DNA of 64,000 bases. Source: Candidatus Marinarcus aquaticus. GTDB taxonomy: Bacteria; Campylobacterota; Campylobacteria; Campylobacterales; Arcobacteraceae. The position numbers and the translations under genes are program-made. The notes below the pieces were generated by a model. The model worked only from the letters and a program-made list of their open reading frames with translations, searched no databases and had not been told where the DNA came from. The stretch lies in the NCBI RefSeq assembly GCF_004116335.1, contig NZ_PDKN01000005.1, positions 124,001-188,000 on the forward strand, in the 5' to 3' direction. Shown one piece after another: positions 9,836 to 16,123 of the stretch (positions are counted from its first letter, which is position 1; every line of letters starts with the position of its first letter).

Positions 9836-11686
9836 GTGACGAAAAAAAACAGAAAAAATCTCTACATCATTGGCGCATTTTTATTGTGCGAAATGGTGAT
9901 TGTATTCGTAATCAATCAAATCAGTGATTCTAAAAAAATCACACTTTTAAATGCAGCCAATAAAGTGGTAACCACCCAATTTAATACCGTATATAACTCT
10001 TTTGAAACTCTTGCAAATACCGTCTTTAAAGGGTACATCAATAAACCCGAAATCATTAATGCCTTTGCACACAAAGAACGAGAAAGGTTGTATAATCTTC
10101 TTAAAGAAGATTATATCTATCTTTCATCGATTAACTTTAAACAGATTCATTTTCATCTTCCCAATAATGACTCTTTTTTGCGTATGCATAAACCTGAACG
10201 TTTTGGGGATGACCTTACAAATATTCGCTACAGTGTAGAGTCTGTCAACAAATATCACAAACCCATTATGGGCTTAGAAATGGGGCGTGTGGTTCCTGGA
10301 TTTCGTTATGTGTATCCTTTATTTAATACAAAAAAAGAGTATTTAGGAAGTGTAGAGACCTCCTTTAGTGTTAAAGCTTTTGCTCATAAAGTCGAAGAGG
10401 TGTTTGATGTACATACTCATTTTTTAATTAATAAAGAGGTGTATGATCGTAAGATTTTTGAAGAGTATAAAGATTACTACTCTAAAAGCATTGAGAGCGA
10501 AGCCTATATTTTATTGGTGCGAGAAGCCATTCGTAAAATCAAACAAGAAGAGCAACAAATTTATAAAGTTTTTCAAAATGATTTAAAACAGACCATCAAT
10601 GAAAAAATGCGTATGAACAAAGAGTTCAGTTTAGAAATTGAGTTGGGAAAAACAAGTGAAGGGCACAAACATAAAATTGCGACTTTCTTACCTCTGTTTA
10701 ATATTCAAAATCAAAAGATGGCATATTTTGTCGTTTATCAAGACAGCGATGAATTGGCTCACTTGCAAGAAGAGAGTTATTACAGTTATGGTCTTTTTAC
10801 ATTGATCAATATTTTGATTTTTATTTTGATTTATAAAGAGGTGAATTTCAGAGAGAATTTGCTTATAAGAATTAAAGAGAGTACACAAAAACTCAGACAA
10901 AAAAGAGCAGAGCTCGAAGAATTAAATAACTCCTTAGAGGTGCGAATTAAAAAAGAGGTTCAAAAAAGTCGAGAGCATGAGTTACAACTTTTTGAAGTAG
11001 AAAAGATGGCTCAAATGGGAGAAATGATAGGGAACATCGCACATCAATGGCGACAACCTTTGAGTGCTATTGCTTCATCCTCTTCTGCAATTAAATTGCA
11101 TTATGAACTGGAAGTTTTAAACAAAGAGGGGCTGTATAATTATTTGGATGGGATTACAAGAAGTACGCAATATCTCTCTGAAACCATTGATACGTTTAGG
11201 AATTTTGTCAAAGATGATCGAAGTATTCAAGAAGCAAGTGTACAAGAGGTTTTAGAACAAGGTTTGAGTATTGTCAATGATTCATTAAAATCCAATAATA
11301 TTAAATTACATAAAAATTACACGGTGGAACCAATACGGATTAAAACCATTCCAAAAGAGCTCATACAAGTCTTTATCAATGTTATTAACAATGCACGGGA
11401 TATTATTTTAGAGCGAAAAATAAAAAATCCTCAGATCGTTTTAAATGTTGAAAATATCCATGAAACGGTTGTTATTTCCATTGAAGATAATGCAGGAGGA
11501 ATTCCTCAAGAGATTTTACCAAAAGTGTTTGATTTGTACTTTACCACCAAACATCAAAGCAGAGGTACAGGAATAGGACTTCATATGAGTCGCAAAATTG
11601 TTCATGACCATTTAAAAGGAAAGATGTATGTACACAACAGCTCTTTAGGAGCTCGTTTTGTCATGGAGCTTCCTTTAGAGATTTAG
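9836..11686 (+). CDS. Orphan sensor histidine kinase with periplasmic Cache-like domain
   Basis: A 616-residue membrane kinase starting at a GTG. A helix at about 10-30 and another at about 322-343 (GLFTLINILIFILIYKEV) enclose a periplasmic domain containing FLRMHKPERFGDDL, which looks like a double Cache. A coiled coil (350-395) leads to the HisKA domain with His403 in GNIAHQWRQPLSAI, then the ATPase domain with NNARDI (N box), DNAGGIP (G1), YFTTKH (F) and GTGIGLHMSR (G2). No response regulator is encoded nearby. It ends four bases into the convergent PhyH gene. Confidence 0.85.
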   Translation: MTKKNRKNLYIIGAFLLCEMVIVFVINQISDSKKITLLNAANKVVTTQFNTVYNSFETLANTVFKGYINKPEIINAFAHKERERLYNLLKEDYIYLSSINFKQIHFHLPNNDSFLRMHKPERFGDDLTNIRYSVESVNKYHKPIMGLEMGRVVPGFRYVYPLFNTKKEYLGSVETSFSVKAFAHKVEEVFDVHTHFLINKEVYDRKIFEEYKDYYSKSIESEAYILLVREAIRKIKQEEQQIYKVFQNDLKQTINEKMRMNKEFSLEIELGKTSEGHKHKIATFLPLFNIQNQKMAYFVVYQDSDELAHLQEESYYSYGLFTLINILIFILIYKEVNFRENLLIRIKESTQKLRQKRAELEELNNSLEVRIKKEVQKSREHELQLFEVEKMAQMGEMIGNIAHQWRQPLSAIASSSSAIKLHYELEVLNKEGLYNYLDGITRSTQYLSETIDTFRNFVKDDRSIQEASVQEVLEQGLSIVNDSLKSNNIKLHKNYTVEPIRIKTIPKELIQVFINVINNARDIILERKIKNPQIVLNVENIHETVVISIEDNAGGIPQEILPKVFDLYFTTKHQSRGTGIGLHMSRKIVHDHLKGKMYVHNSSLGARFVMELPLEI

Positions 11687-12417
11687 TCTAAAACAACCTC
11701 TTCAAAGTCACTTCGTGTGTCTTTAAGAGCTTTGTTATGGGCTGCCTTAACCGTATATACAAAAGAGATTTTAGCTTGATCCGTGATATTCTTTCCTGCA
11801 TGGTGCAAGGTTTTACAATGAAAAAGAACCACATCTCCTTGATGTAAATTGGTGTGCACTTTTTGTTCAATGAGGGCTTTGTTTTTTTGGTGATCATCTA
11901 AAAAATTACTCATCTCATCAAACTGCTCTTTTTCAAGTTGAAGTGTGTGTGAGCCAGGAATAAACTCCAATAAACCATTTTCTAAATACTCATCATCCAA
12001 TGCCAACCATACTGAGACCAAATCAGAGGTTTCAAAGTTCCAGTATCGTACATCTTGGTGCCAAAAGGTGCGAGAACTGATTTGAGGCATTTTGGTCATA
12101 ATAGAGTTGTGGTGTGCGAGTGTCAGTACAGGGGTATCTTTTAAAACCTGTTTTAAAATAGGGCGAATTTCATCATATGTCATCCACTCTTGGAAAACAG
12201 CTTCTCTTTTATAAACTTGTCGCAGTCGTCGTACTGTAACTGAAGAGTCCTCTTGTTGGAGATACTCTTGTTCACTCTCTATGGGAAGCTGTTTGGCTTC
12301 TAAATGTTGTTTTGCTTTGTGCAATATTGCTTCGCACAACGTTTGTGGTGCAAAGTTGCGTAAAACTAAAAAACCATTTTTATTGAATTCATTCAGTTGT
12401 TCTTGATTTAATTGCAT
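11683..12417 (-). CDS. Phytanoyl-CoA dioxygenase (PhyH) family oxygenase
   Basis: A 244-residue Fe(II)/2-oxoglutarate oxygenase. The metal triad can be read: His120 and Asp122 in FWHQDVRYW and His206 in LHHAGKN; the segment NGLLEFIPGSH between them is family-typical. It hydroxylates a small molecule that the sequence does not reveal. It ends overlapping the convergent histidine kinase by four bases. A second, unrelated 2OG oxygenase lies at 12803-13519. Confidence 0.85.
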   Translation of the reverse strand: MQLNQEQLNEFNKNGFLVLRNFAPQTLCEAILHKAKQHLEAKQLPIESEQEYLQQEDSSVTVRRLRQVYKREAVFQEWMTYDEIRPILKQVLKDTPVLTLAHHNSIMTKMPQISSRTFWHQDVRYWNFETSDLVSVWLALDDEYLENGLLEFIPGSHTLQLEKEQFDEMSNFLDDHQKNKALIEQKVHTNLHQGDVVLFHCKTLHHAGKNITDQAKISFVYTVKAAHNKALKDTRSDFEEVVLD

Positions 12418-12488: not shown

Positions 12489-12716
12489 TTACTCTTCAAA
12501 ATCTCGGTATGAACTTTTGTGCATTGATTCAAAGTCATCAATATCGTCATCATAGTAATCATCATAATCGACTGTAAAAATTTTGTCATAACCTAATTTT
12601 TGCAGTTCAGCATCCAGATTCTCTTCAGATAATCTGTTTTTGATTTTTGACATGATGAGCTCAATGTGTTCCTCTGTAACATTGTTTGCTCTAAGCTCAT
12701 AAATAATCGAATCCAT
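12489..12716 (-). CDS. Small acidic protein of unknown function
   Basis: A 75-residue protein with a helical N-terminal half (ANNVTEEHIELIMSKIKNRL) and a very acidic C-terminal half (YDDYYDDDIDDFES). Ribosome binding site GAGGATTGAGTA. It lies between the two oxygenase genes on the same strand, 86 bases after the 2OG oxygenase. NNVTEEHIE has a faint likeness to NNITLEEIV in the small proteins at 15052 and 15899, too short to call homology. Confidence 0.6.
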   Translation of the reverse strand: MDSIIYELRANNVTEEHIELIMSKIKNRLSEENLDAELQKLGYDKIFTVDYDDYYDDDIDDFESMHKSSYRDFEE

Positions 12717-12802: not shown

Positions 12803-13519
12803 TTATTGCACAATTGCATCATGCCACTGTACCAATGTCAGCCTATATCCCTCTTTTACAGGTAGAACCTCATGTGTAAAAAATGGATTACTTAAAAACA
12901 ATACCATGTCCCCTTTTTGTGGAGAGAGTTTTACATTTTGCTGTGTTTCATCATACAAATAGTTAAAAACAAGCTCTCCTCCACTGAATGAGTATGGCGT
13001 AGTCAGTGTTTCATCGTGCTCTGTTAAAAACAGAACGGAAGTCACTTTTCTTTGTGGTGCCACGGGTAAAAAACCCACAATCTCACTCTCTTTGAGCAAT
13101 ACATTGGAGTCATCACTGTGTGCTTTATAGAATGACCCTTTCGTATACTCAAGCATTTGAATTTGCGTTGAAGTGGTTAATACCACAGAAAAAAATGCTT
13201 CAATCTCCTCTTTATGCTCTAAAAAAACACTCTTATATACGTTGGTATACAAGGTTTCCAAGTCATAAATCTTTGTCTTTCGAATATCGGTTTTAAGTGC
13301 TTCATCCAAGACCAAATCAGAACTTTTGCGTATTTTAGCATCGCATGCATTGTTGCTTTCTTGAATGGCATCACAAATATGCTCACAGTTTTCAGATGAT
13401 AAAAAGTTTTTAATCACTAAAAATGGCAAGTCATGGTATGGATTGGGCAACAGTTTTGTTGGCATATCCACATGGAGCAAAAAGTCATCGCAATAGATTT
13501 TATTGCTGATTTGTGTCAT
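12803..13519 (-). CDS. 2OG-Fe(II) oxygenase, prolyl-4-hydroxylase (PKHD) type
   Basis: A 238-residue oxygenase. I chose the ATG at 13519, which overlaps the stop of the SnoaL-like gene as ATGA and follows GGAGAAAAAAAC. Iron ligands His134 and Asp136 (YKAHSDDS) and His216 (FTHEVLPV), with Arg226 for 2-oxoglutarate. SFSGGELVF is typical of the Piu3/YbiX-like P4H group. The substrate is unknown; neighbours include an aminopeptidase and a SnoaL-like protein in one operon. Confidence 0.85.
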   Translation of the reverse strand: MTQISNKIYCDDFLLHVDMPTKLLPNPYHDLPFLVIKNFLSSENCEHICDAIQESNNACDAKIRKSSDLVLDEALKTDIRKTKIYDLETLYTNVYKSVFLEHKEEIEAFFSVVLTTSTQIQMLEYTKGSFYKAHSDDSNVLLKESEIVGFLPVAPQRKVTSVLFLTEHDETLTTPYSFSGGELVFNYLYDETQQNVKLSPQKGDMVLFLSNPFFTHEVLPVKEGYRLTLVQWHDAIVQ

Positions 13520-13929
13520 GTTTTTTTCTCCAATTGACTGTAGAGGTTGGTTAAATCTCCCAATACCCAAATATCTACAATTTTCCCTTCTTGAAATCTG
13601 AAAAATGAAGCACCGTTATATTTGATTCTATTTCCGCTTGCTTCAAAGTTAAAAAGCTTACCTTTGTGTGTTCCATTATAAATGGCTCGAACGGCAATTG
13701 CATCACCTTCACAAATCATGGTTTCAATACCGTGGAAAAGATTTGGAATACCTGTTAAGATATTGTCCATGTACTTTTCAAACTCTTTTTTCCCCACAGC
13801 ATTGATGTTCAATGAACCGTGGAACGTGATATTATCATCAAATAAGATGTCAATGTAGTCTTTGTTGTTTTTATTCCAAAGCTCTTCATAGTAGAGTTTG
13901 ACTAACTCTTTATTTGATTTTATTTTCAT
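13516..13929 (-). CDS. SnoaL-like / NTF2-fold protein
   Basis: A 137-residue protein of the SnoaL/ketosteroid isomerase-like fold: helix-rich NKELVKLYYEELWNKNN, then FHGIETMICEGDAIAVRAIYNGTHKG and a final FRFQEGKIVDIWVLGDLTNLY. Such proteins bind or isomerise small hydrophobic substrates, and polyketide cyclases are in the same family, but many are uncharacterised. It starts 7 bases after the M42 gene and overlaps the oxygenase by four bases, so the genes are co-translated. Confidence 0.8.
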   Translation of the reverse strand: MKIKSNKELVKLYYEELWNKNNKDYIDILFDDNITFHGSLNINAVGKKEFEKYMDNILTGIPNLFHGIETMICEGDAIAVRAIYNGTHKGKLFNFEASGNRIKYNGASFFRFQEGKIVDIWVLGDLTNLYSQLEKKT

Positions 13930-13936
13930 AATGGCG

Positions 13937-15055
13937 TTATTTCCCTTTTTCTTGTTTTTGTTTAATATAGAGTTGCGTTAATATATACAGTACCGTTTTA
14001 ACCGATAACACTGAAGCACTCTCTTCAACAGTATGATAACCTGTTGTTGGTATTTGCAGTGTGGTTCCTTGAATGGCACCTCGCGACTCTTTTGTAATTC
14101 TTCCCATCTCTGTACTACCTAATGACAGAAGAGGTTGGTGTTTCTCTTTTCTTAGTTTATTCAACTCTTGAATGTACATATCTTTGCATGAAAACGCTAT
14201 GTTGTTGTGATGACAAAATGTTTTAAGTGTCTTTAGCAATGGTGACTTGAATCGTGCATTGGCATCTTTGTTTCGTAAAACAATCTGTTGCGCATCGGCT
14301 TGTTCTCTTGTATCATATGGACTGGTGTCTAAAACCAACAATTCATTGGTAAAGAGTCTCTTTTTTTGAAACCACTCATGCACATAACGCCACGATTTTC
14401 CTGCTTCTTCTTGTGCAGTGAAAAATGCAGTACCTTGATACCCATTTTGATACAAATAGATGATAATCGCTGCACTGATAACGTTGTCCAGTTGTGCACT
14501 TAAAATACCACTTTTGTTCTCCAGTTTATCGTTAAAGGCTATGGGCGTTCCTGGTTGCAAATGTTCCAAGCCATTGATTTCAAATACCAAGTTATTAATC
14601 TCTGGACACATATAACTTTTGGTGATTTCACCCATACCTAAATAGCTTCCACTCCAAGGTTCATACGCTTGTACTTTTTGATTTAAATAGCGTGATGTGA
14701 TTTGTTGAAAGGTCTGTTCTGATACAGAGTTTCCTTTTAAATCAGAGCGGTTTTTAGCTAAAAACGCAGCATATTGAAACTCGTTGGGACCCGTACAAAC
14801 TAATCCATGACGGTCAATATGAGCACTGAGCATTCCATGATTTGGATGGCTTCCTTGTGCTACTAATAATCCATCATAATAGTATGTTTGAATTCCAATC
14901 TCTTCTAACTCTCTTTTTAAATAAAGAAAGAAAGAGTGTTCCGAACCGATTACTGATGGGGTTCGAATGAGTTGTTTCAACATGTCTAAAAATGCAACAA
15001 AGTTCTTAATGCCTTCAATTGCTTGTAGTGATTCTTCTTTACTCTTTTTTTTCAT
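13937..15055 (-). CDS. M42 family metallo-aminopeptidase
   Basis: A 372-residue protein. Ligands for two metals can be read in the order expected of M42 peptidases: His79 and Asp81 (SAHIDRHG), Asp190 (QLDNVISA), Glu216/Glu217 (AQEEAGKSW), Asp243 (LDTSPYD) and His341 (YHTVEES). M42 enzymes form large hollow dodecamers that trim peptides in the cytoplasm. Start overlaps the preceding small gene as ATGA. Its place in an operon with a SnoaL protein and an oxygenase is unusual; it could act on a peptide or another amide. Confidence 0.85.
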   Translation of the reverse strand: MKKKSKEESLQAIEGIKNFVAFLDMLKQLIRTPSVIGSEHSFFLYLKRELEEIGIQTYYYDGLLVAQGSHPNHGMLSAHIDRHGLVCTGPNEFQYAAFLAKNRSDLKGNSVSEQTFQQITSRYLNQKVQAYEPWSGSYLGMGEITKSYMCPEINNLVFEINGLEHLQPGTPIAFNDKLENKSGILSAQLDNVISAAIIIYLYQNGYQGTAFFTAQEEAGKSWRYVHEWFQKKRLFTNELLVLDTSPYDTREQADAQQIVLRNKDANARFKSPLLKTLKTFCHHNNIAFSCKDMYIQELNKLRKEKHQPLLSLGSTEMGRITKESRGAIQGTTLQIPTTGYHTVEESASVLSVKTVLYILTQLYIKQKQEKGK

Positions 15056-15291
15056 TGTTTTAAACTGATTACTCTGTCTGCAAGTACAGCTAAATTGTTA
15101 ATATTTAATTTAACGGTACTGTTAACGATATCCTCAAATGTAATATTGTTATTAATTATGATTGAAGAGGCTGAATCCAAACGTCGATTGTTTTTATATT
15201 CGTGTACCACTTCACAGATTAACTGTCTTAACAGATCTCTTTTTTTCTTCTCTTCTCGTTTTTGTTCATCTGTTAAAAGAAATTCGCTCAT
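15052..15291 (-). CDS. Small unknown protein, paralogue of 15899-16123
   Basis: A 79-residue protein. The ATG at 15291 follows GGGAG; an in-frame TTG at 15309 is less likely. The C-terminal 40 residues match the other small protein: NNITFEDIVN here and NNITLEEIVN there, then T-x-KL-x-I and LAD followed by LK at the end. The N-terminal part is charged and helical. It overlaps the M42 aminopeptidase start (ATGA), so it begins that operon. Family and function are unknown. Confidence 0.7.
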   Translation of the reverse strand: MSEFLLTDEQKREEKKKRDLLRQLICEVVHEYKNNRRLDSASSIIINNNITFEDIVNSTVKLNINNLAVLADRVISLKQ

Positions 15292-15333: not shown

Positions 15334-15567
15334 TTACTGTTGTTGAATTTGTTGTTCTTGTTTAATCACACACTCTTCGTAAATGTTTTCACACTTAGAA
15401 TAACATGCAACATTTTCAGTCTCTTTTTCATCGCATTTTTCAATACATTGGTCATAGAGTGTATCACACACATCATTGACTTGTAAATCCTCTTGGCTTG
15501 ATGGCATCTCATTGGCATACAAGAACAAGTTGAACACCAATAATGGCACCAACAAAAACTTTAACAT
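15334..15567 (-). CDS. Periplasmic six-cysteine helical-hairpin protein
   Basis: A 77-residue protein with a signal peptide (MLKFLLVPLLVFNLFLYA). The mature part carries six cysteines in a symmetrical order: Cys34-x6-Cys41-x3-Cys45-x9-Cys55-x3-Cys59-x6-Cys66. This pattern fits two antiparallel helices joined by three disulfides, like the twin CX3C proteins of mitochondria. It ends in a Gln-rich tail. A good ribosome binding site (AGGAG) precedes ATG, and a long structured leader lies upstream. No function known. Confidence 0.75.
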   Translation of the reverse strand: MLKFLLVPLLVFNLFLYANEMPSSQEDLQVNDVCDTLYDQCIEKCDEKETENVACYSKCENIYEECVIKQEQQIQQQ

Positions 15568-15898
15568 CGGCTTTCTCCTGTTTAACTTACGAGTAAGTTT
15601 AATTTGTTACTATGAGTGCACTCTTATAGCAGAGTACACATCAACAATTCTCAAAAACTTTTCTATGCATTTGGCGGTGCGGGAAGTTTTTGAGACCTCT
15701 GAACGAGCGTTTCCTTATTCTACTTATCGAATTATAAACTAAAAGTTGAAAAAAAATTTCAAAATGAATTTAAAAAAAATGATTTTTTTTAAGAGGTGGC
15801 TTTTTTAGGCTTTTATAGCAATGAAATTTTTTAAAAAAATGGACTTTTTTTTAAAGCAAAAAAGCAAAAAAGTGAGATTTTTTAAAAAAATTGAAGCT
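15568..15898. other. 331-base gene-free stretch upstream of the six-cysteine gene
   Basis: The part next to the gene (15590-15700) has ordinary composition and contains the stem-loop at 15649-15695 and the palindrome GAGTGCACTC at 15614. The outer part (about 15745-15895) is a block of long A and T runs, with ATTTTTTAAAAAAAT occurring twice. It may hold promoters, terminators or curved DNA. No reading frame is supported. Confidence 0.6.
15649..15695 (-). ncRNA. Stem-loop in the leader of the six-cysteine gene
   Basis: A perfect 12-base inverted repeat (TCTCAAAAACTT and its complement) encloses a 23-base loop containing GGCGGTGCGGG on the plus strand. It sits 82-128 bases before the ATG at 15567. 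It matches none of the riboswitch or RNA families I can recognise. It could be part of the mRNA leader or of a separate small RNA. Confidence 0.4.
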
Positions 15899-16123
15899 TT
15901 ACTTGAGTTTGTTGATATGATCTGCCAGTTTTGCAATATCAAAAATACCAAGTTTCATGGTTTTATTGACAATTTCTTCGAGTGTAATGTTATTCTCTAA
16001 TGCAATTTTTGCTGCACCATCGAAGTCTTGTTTTGCCCGAATAAGTGTAGAAATCTCCGCTACTTTGTCATAAATGGGATCATACGCACGGTACGTACTT
16101 TTAACAGAGTTTGAATCATCCAC
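15899..16123 (-). CDS. Small unknown protein, paralogue of 15052-15291
   Basis: A 74-residue protein that probably starts at GTG (16123), since no ATG is in frame before a stop. Its second half (AKIALENNITLEEIVNKTMK, then LGIFDIAKLAD) is homologous to the protein at 15052. The N-terminal half is helical. It stands alone, upstream of the six-cysteine gene on the same strand. Function unknown. Confidence 0.6.
   Translation of the reverse strand: MDDSNSVKSTYRAYDPIYDKVAEISTLIRAKQDFDGAAKIALENNITLEEIVNKTMKLGIFDIAKLADHINKLK

What the first reader, a model, noticed from the sequence alone, without database searches (positions are those of the whole stretch)
15334..15567. Periplasmic twin CX3C hairpin protein
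Six cysteines in the mirror-like order x6, x3, x9, x3, x6 would lock two helices by three disulfides. The layout recalls small mitochondrial Tim and CHCH proteins, though the sequence does not show common origin. In a bacterium with a signal peptide it could be a chaperone or a metal or redox protein.
Basis: partly seen in the sequence, partly recalled or inferred. Interest (0 to 1): 0.55.

Follow-up and report, generated by a model that had tools for sequence, protein, structure and literature searches.

The report
Bacterial exported six-cysteine helical hairpin protein
This is a real, conserved but uncharacterised small exported bacterial protein whose six mirrored cysteines probably staple two helices into a rigid hairpin; the shape resembles some mitochondrial and toxin hairpins without evidence of common origin, and what it does in the cell is not known.

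Summary
ORF 15334-15567 (-) encodes 77 aa with C-x6-C-x3-C-x9-C-x3-C-x6-C after a Sec-type signal. It is not chance: all 33 profile matches in 104 family genomes keep the six cysteines in register, close pairs show purifying selection, and in 25 of 26 genomes with both genes it lies 35-2105 bp from a SnoaL-like gene. AlphaFold2 gives a helix-loop-helix in the window protein and in a distant relative. Ideal helices allow three rungs (C1-C6, C2-C5, C3-C4), with conserved hydrophobics mainly on one face. DsbA and DsbB homologues exist. Pfam and NCBIfam have no family for it; Tim10 or CHCH membership is not supported. The weak resemblances to alpha-hairpinins and worm neurotoxin B-IV look convergent. 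Metal or redox roles are disfavoured. Best explanation: an oxidised, acidic, non-catalytic periplasmic hairpin that docks through one face, encoded at the head of a conserved gene cluster. Partner and process are unknown. A new family of a known structural kind; moderate interest.

The parts
15334..15567 (-). CDS of the six-cysteine hairpin protein, 77 aa
   Evidence: relatives
15514..15567 (-). Sec-type signal peptide (residues 1-18, cleavage inferred before N19; no twin arginine)
   Evidence: sequence; the N-terminal consensus MLKxI...LxAN in alignment A1; hydropathy; no signal-peptide predictor was run
15370..15468 (-). hairpin core CX6CX3C-x9-CX3CX6C (C34 to C66)
   Evidence: AlphaFold2 helices 28-43 and 52-76
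15574..15579 (-). Shine-Dalgarno-like AGGAGA
   Evidence: sequence
15650..15694 (.). 11-bp perfect inverted repeat in the leader between the putative -10 block and the hairpin gene; meaning unknown
   Evidence: 1 match, 0 in 100 shuffles; RNA fold z -2.54; not perfect in the same-genus relative
15731..15736 (-). putative -10 TATAAT within a block conserved in the same-genus relative
   Evidence: alignment; the consensus scan does not list it
15052..15291 (-). small orphan protein 'sm0' (79 aa)
15899..16123 (-). second 'sm0' paralogue (74 aa, GTG start)
13937..15055 (-). M42-like peptidase (372 aa)
   Evidence: PF05343, E 2.6e-7, partial
13516..13929 (-). SnoaL-like protein (137 aa), the most constant neighbour
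   Evidence: PF07366, E 1.2e-27
12803..13519 (-). 2OG-Fe(II) oxygenase (238 aa)
   Evidence: PF13640, E 5.2e-15
12489..12716 (-). small orphan protein 'acid6' with acidic tail (75 aa)
11683..12417 (-). PhyH-family dioxygenase (244 aa)
   Evidence: PF05721, E 7.7e-35

Best explanation
The gene makes a small protein that is exported unfolded by Sec, loses its signal peptide and is oxidised by the Dsb system to an antiparallel two-helix hairpin with three disulfide rungs (C1-C6, C2-C5, C3-C4). It is not an enzyme. It works as a rigid acidic module that docks on a partner, or on a second copy, through one hydrophobic face next to the disulfide ladder (aromatic at C1+4 and aliphatic at C2+1 of helix 1; aromatic or aliphatic at C4+1 and C5+4 of helix 2). 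Shown here by computation: gene, conservation, spacing, predicted hairpin, Dsb homologues, gene linkage. Inferred: export, oxidation, connectivity, docking face. Unknown: the partner and the process. It stands at the head of a same-strand run with sm0, M42-like peptidase, SnoaL-like, 2OG oxygenase, acid6 and PhyH genes; co-transcription was not tested.
For: Six cysteines in register in 33 of 33 family matches, while the loop is 5-12 residues long in 43 distinct cores. AlphaFold2: helices 28-43 and 52-76, pLDDT block means 80-91 for residues 31-70; L027: helices 73-85 and 89-106, block means 72-88 for residues 71-108. Ideal helices bring all three rungs together; two other pairings leave a pair 13.6 and 16.6 A apart. 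Conserved hydrophobics (0.91, 0.65, 0.74, 0.81 of 43 cores) lie on one face, with acids at 0.86 and 0.95 beside them. Mature cysteine number even in 42 of 44; the two exceptions count a lipobox cysteine. A double hairpin with 12 cysteines in G453. DsbA-family matches at 3 places and one DsbB match. Purifying selection. Linkage to SnoaL in 25 of 26 genomes, and in L067 of another family.
Against: No disulfide, location or partner was measured. Both models rest on two-row alignments, mean pLDDT 70.4 and 61.9, and gave no coordinates. The 43-core and 44-protein sets were chosen by the pattern, so their cysteine invariance and, in part, parity are by construction. Two G036 paralogues, left out of those sets, have seven cysteines. 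Helix 1 also has a partly hydrophobic position on the other face (C1+3, 0.42). In 15 fetched SnoaL stretches of genomes without a profile match there is no hairpin, and 10 of them keep M42, so these genes do not need it; L073, L075 and L076 have a hairpin with none of the five partners. The neighbours look cytoplasmic, a different compartment. Shared ancestry inflates the co-occurrence tests.
Confidence: 0.45

Rival explanations
1. A small periplasmic chaperone that works like the mitochondrial Tim9/Tim10 proteins: oxidised hairpins assemble and shield hydrophobic segments of membrane or outer-membrane proteins.
For: Same hairpin principle and inner CX3C pairs; Tim9.10 (3dxr) and TIM22 entries (7cgp, 6lo8) appear in the structural second look at Z 3.5-3.6; one conserved hydrophobic face.
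Against: Unrelated proteins rank above them (Z 4.6-5.0), and the tool's note says that Z of this size may mean only a common arrangement. Mature proteins are very polar (GRAVY -0.29 to -1.6 in 44). Found in only 31 of 104 family genomes, unusual for a general chaperone. No Tim10 model match at the locus.
Confidence: 0.15
2. A metal (for example Cu(I) or Zn) binding or storage protein that uses reduced cysteines, comparable in principle to Csp copper storage proteins.
For: Six cysteines in about 60 mature residues, with CX3C pairs; apo-Csp1 (5fjd) is in the structural list at Z 2.5.
Against: No CC and no CXXC in 44 of 44, His 0-2 and Trp 0 per protein. No twin arginine in the signal, while Csp1 is Tat-exported (recalled). 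Dsb homologues present. No metal transport or storage family among the 10 window neighbours scanned.
Confidence: 0.12
3. A secreted peptide acting on other cells (antimicrobial or bacteriocin-like), analogous to plant alpha-hairpinins or worm hairpin toxins.
For: Best Foldseek row is neurotoxin B-IV (E 2.3, prob 0.54); Pfam Toxin_13 matches 13 of 43 cores, best E 0.0015; Antimicrobial21 matches 3 of 43, best E 0.096; vicilin-buried hairpinins are the best PDB sequence rows (E 0.013).
Against: All these scores are weak and mostly align cysteines; the window core itself does not match Toxin_13. The protein is acidic (pI 4.05). dN/dS 0.08-0.44 gives no sign of arms-race change. No exporter or immunity family among the 10 window neighbours scanned. 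A lipobox form exists.
Confidence: 0.1
4. A thiol-disulfide redox carrier.
For: Cysteine-rich, with an export signal; a glutathione synthetase gene lies close to it, after two sm0 genes, in L107.
Against: No CXXC in 44 of 44 and no CXC from the core onward; mirrored spacing fits structural rungs.
Confidence: 0.03

Closest known systems
Plant alpha-hairpinins, including vicilin-buried peptides
   Same: Two antiparallel helices, CXXXC on each, pairing Cys1-Cys4 and Cys2-Cys3 (passages of PMC7191063); the inner four cysteines here fit; best PDB sequence rows, E 0.013.
   Different: Two rungs, not three; plant defence or seed peptides; here acidic, bacterial, with a further CX6C rung.
Neurotoxin B-IV of a nemertean worm (Toxin_13)
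   Same: Helical hairpin cross-linked by disulfides (passages and reference title in PMC6410017); top Foldseek row; Toxin_13 weakly matches 13 of 43.
   Different: Four disulfides, not three; no significant fold score; no sign of a toxin role here.
Small Tim proteins (Tim9/Tim10, zf-Tim10_DDP)
   Same: Oxidised helical hairpin with twin CX3C (family features recalled).
   Different: Two rungs; eukaryotic; no match to PF02953 at this locus.
CHCH / twin CX9C proteins (Cox17, CHCHD)
   Same: Disulfide-linked antiparallel helices (recalled).
   Different: CX9C spacing; no CX9C here and no CHCH model match.

Membership tests
Small Tim (zf-Tim10_DDP, PF02953) | sequence match to the family model | tested here: not met
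   PF02953 over the own genome at E <= 10 gave one match, on another contig and below cut-off, none at this locus; none of 43 cores matched in hmmscan (filters drop most matches above about E 0.1)
Small Tim (zf-Tim10_DDP, PF02953) | twin CX3C on two helices | tested here: met
   C41/C45 and C55/C59; in the model C45 lies two residues past the end of helix 1
Small Tim (zf-Tim10_DDP, PF02953) | hexameric chaperone ring | not testable with these tools
   no complex prediction or assay
CHCH / twin CX9C | CX9C on each helix | tested here: not met
   spacing read from the sequence: x6 and x3, x10 from outer to inner cysteine
CHCH / twin CX9C | sequence match to CHCH-type models | tested here: not met
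   no such family or 85 (HMMER filters drop most matches above about E 0.1)
alpha-hairpinin | CXXXC-Xn-CXXXC on an antiparallel helical hairpin | tested here: met
   sequence; models; definition from passages of PMC7191063
alpha-hairpinin | four cysteines, two rungs | tested here: not met
   six cysteines
alpha-hairpinin | sequence match to a plant antimicrobial family model (Antimicrobial21, PF14861; that it stands for hairpinins is recalled) | tested here: inconclusive
   3 of 43 cores, best E 0.096
Neurotoxin B-IV (Toxin_13) | sequence match to PF07822 | tested here: inconclusive
   13 of 43 cores, best E 0.0015 before correction for 43 scans; the window core does not match
Neurotoxin B-IV (Toxin_13) | four disulfides | tested here: not met
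   only six cysteines; four disulfides stated in a passage of PMC6410017
Csp copper storage | four-helix bundle fold | tested here: inconclusive
   5fjd at Z 2.5; the model has two helices besides the signal

The most novel reading that the evidence does not exclude
These bacteria carry a dedicated class of Dsb-oxidised three-rung hairpin proteins, used singly, in tandem or lipid-anchored, that shield or hold client segments through one hydrophobic face: a bacterial periplasmic counterpart, arisen independently, of the hairpin chaperones of the mitochondrial intermembrane space.
Probability: 0.13. Interest if true: 0.68.

Novelty: new variant of a known kind. Interest (0 to 1): 0.42.

Why it matters
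Disulfide-laddered helical hairpins are well studied in mitochondria, plant seeds and venoms. A conserved, gene-cluster-linked bacterial family with an extra rung and no family model would let one test whether such hairpins arose repeatedly and what they do in a compartment that also oxidises proteins. It would also give a handle on an uncharacterised conserved gene cluster with two further orphan small proteins.

Tried and rejected
Rejected: chance or non-coding ORF. Tim10/CHCH homology. Plasmid or phage origin: tblastn at E <= 0.1 found no match in the two collections; in viral contigs 12 stretches matched a pattern and none was confirmed. Defence function: in 8 proteins PADLOC hit only the 2OG oxygenase, with models named 2OG. 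RNA family around the gene: only one match, mir-186 at E 0.89, below its gathering score. Led nowhere: phmmer of the single protein against the PDB (0 rows). Eight literature searches listed no paper on this bacterial family that I recognised; the papers were seen only as listings, except passages of PMC8267372, PMC6410017 and PMC7191063.

Profile matches that did not hold up: 33 of 397 genomes matched at E <= 0.01; 26 hold the pattern, four loci (L053-L056, E 8.6e-5 to 6.1e-4) lack it, and three genomes (E about 0.005-0.006) were not examined. In one search a weaker match, L012 (E 0.025), lacks it too; the other matches above E 0.0064 were scanned, where only L022 (and L023, E 1.3e-4) showed it. 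(28 six-frame matches against a mean of 0.029, largest 2, for 4095 other spacings) is biased, because 40 of its 41 sources were picked for this neighbourhood; I do not rest on it. Absence from the lists excludes no fold.

Full report
Observation. The minus-strand ORF 15334-15567 encodes 77 residues. After an 18-residue Sec-like signal (no twin arginine) the mature part has six cysteines spaced x6, x3, x9, x3, x6. The DNA pattern occurs once in the window and in none of 100 shuffles. Pfam and NCBIfam gave no family at E <= 10.

It is a real family. A single-sequence search of 60 genomes (own included) gave 12 matches at E <= 0.0064, all with the six cysteines in register. A profile (A1, 11 rows) found 31 of 104 genomes of the own family at E <= 0.001; all 33 matches there keep the register, one with an extra loop cysteine. 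In the phylum sample 33 of 397 genomes matched at E <= 0.01, of which 26 are verified by the pattern, 4 lack it and 3 were not examined. One scan of genome contigs confirmed one locus, L027 in a Leptospiraceae MAG; a search centred on its genome gave 3 of 247, itself included, each with the hairpin and two further cysteines in the exported part. Loop length in 43 distinct cores is 5 to 12, mostly 9 or 10; these 43 were selected by the pattern. Twelve close pairs give dN/dS 0.08-0.44: purifying selection. The window protein is 47% identical to its same-genus relative, the SnoaL neighbour 81%, so the hairpin changes faster outside the cysteines.

Variants. G453 has two hairpins in one 119-residue protein. 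A lipobox form (L049-L052, L010) has the hairpin plus a CX3C...CX3C unit, with pI 8.65-9.03. G019 has two paralogues about 11 kb apart. G036 has two adjacent paralogues with seven cysteines each, which does not fit closed intramolecular pairing and might mean an intermolecular bond.

Structure. AlphaFold2 on the window protein with one further row (L027) gives helices 28-43 and 52-76, apart from the signal helix; on L027 with the window protein as second row it gives helices 73-85 and 89-106. Mean pLDDT is 70.4 and 61.9; block means are 80-91 for residues 31-70 and 72-88 for residues 71-108. On the same geometry the four most hydrophobic positions between the cysteines (0.91 and 0.65 in helix 1; 0.74 and 0.81 in helix 2, of 43 cores) lie on one face together with conserved acids after C1 and C5; C1+3, at 0.42, lies on the other. 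Foldseek against the PDB gives nothing at E <= 0.001; the best row is neurotoxin B-IV, E 2.3. The second look puts unrelated proteins first (Z up to 5.0), with Tim entries at 3.5-3.6 and Csp1 at 2.5, all within what the tool calls a common arrangement. The profile's best PDB sequence rows are vicilin-buried hairpinins, E 0.013.

Chemistry. In 44 pattern-selected proteins there is no CC and no CXXC, His is 0-2, Trp 0, and no CXC from the core onward. Cysteine number after residue 18 is even in 42, and the other two count a lipobox cysteine. The genome has DsbA-family matches at three places, one of them (a partial model match) 338 bases from a DsbB match. So structural disulfides are more likely than metal or redox thiols. 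This is inference.

Neighbourhood. In the window the hairpin gene leads a minus-strand run: sm0, M42-like peptidase, SnoaL-like, 2OG oxygenase, acid6, PhyH; a second sm0 lies upstream. A TATAAT block shared with the same-genus relative and a leader stem lie before the gene. Across 104 family genomes: hairpin 31, SnoaL 52, sm0 27, acid6 59. Hairpin and SnoaL co-occur in 26; in 25 of these they are 35-2105 bp apart, and in the 26th on two contigs (in G019 the nearer paralogue was taken). Hairpin and sm0 co-occur in 22; 9 hairpin genomes lack sm0 and 5 genomes have sm0 alone, one of the five (G025) a doubtful match in a 718-residue frame. Fisher tests (4.8e-11 for sm0, 1.0e-5 for SnoaL, 0.083 for acid6) ignore shared ancestry. 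The order hairpin-SnoaL-acid6 also occurs in another family of the order (L067); in further families L068 has M42 503 bp downstream, and L074 a 197-residue member of the SnoaL BLAST cluster 340 bp away on the other strand.

Against a tight functional tie: 15 fetched SnoaL stretches from genomes without a profile match (L092-L106) hold no hairpin, and 10 of them (seven of genus g10, three of g14) keep M42. L073, L075 and L076 carry a hairpin with none of the five partners.

Explanation and limits. The structural part (exported, oxidised three-rung hairpin) I hold at about 0.85; the whole statement, with the docking role through one face, at about 0.45; no process is assigned. Rivals are a Tim-like chaperone, a metal protein, a secreted peptide and a redox carrier, in that order. 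It works like the known disulfide-stapled helical hairpins; it is not shown to be a member of any of their families, and the resemblance is most simply convergent.

Literature. Eight searches of the held open-access library listed no paper that I recognised as treating a bacterial CX6CX3C/CX3CX6C family; subscription journals are mostly missing there, so this is no proof.

Noticed in passing
15650-15694: Perfect 11-bp inverted repeat in the leader of the hairpin gene, fold z -2.54; imperfect in the same-genus relative. Possible attenuator or regulator site.
   Followed up: partly
15052-15291 and 15899-16123: Two paralogous small orphan proteins (sm0), often in pairs near the hairpin gene in relatives; no Pfam or NCBIfam family over cut-off.
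   Followed up: partly
12489-12716: Small orphan protein (acid6) with a strongly conserved core and an acidic Tyr/Asp tail; in 59 of 104 family genomes, in several just before or overlapping the SnoaL gene.
   Followed up: partly
L107:8127-8486: Tandem double hairpin with 12 cysteines, followed by two sm0 genes and a glutathione synthetase gene.
   Followed up: partly
L022:1468-1886: Two adjacent hairpin paralogues, each with a seventh cysteine in the loop; could pair with each other.
   Followed up: no
L104:2429-4814: RimK-like ligase (by BLAST cluster) next to an AstE/AspA-type deacylase and a putative ATP-dependent zinc protease beside the SnoaL gene: a possible glutamate-ligation cluster.
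   Followed up: no
L049, L050, L051, L052, L010: Basic lipobox form: CX6CX3C hairpin followed by a second CX3C...CX3C unit.
   Followed up: partly
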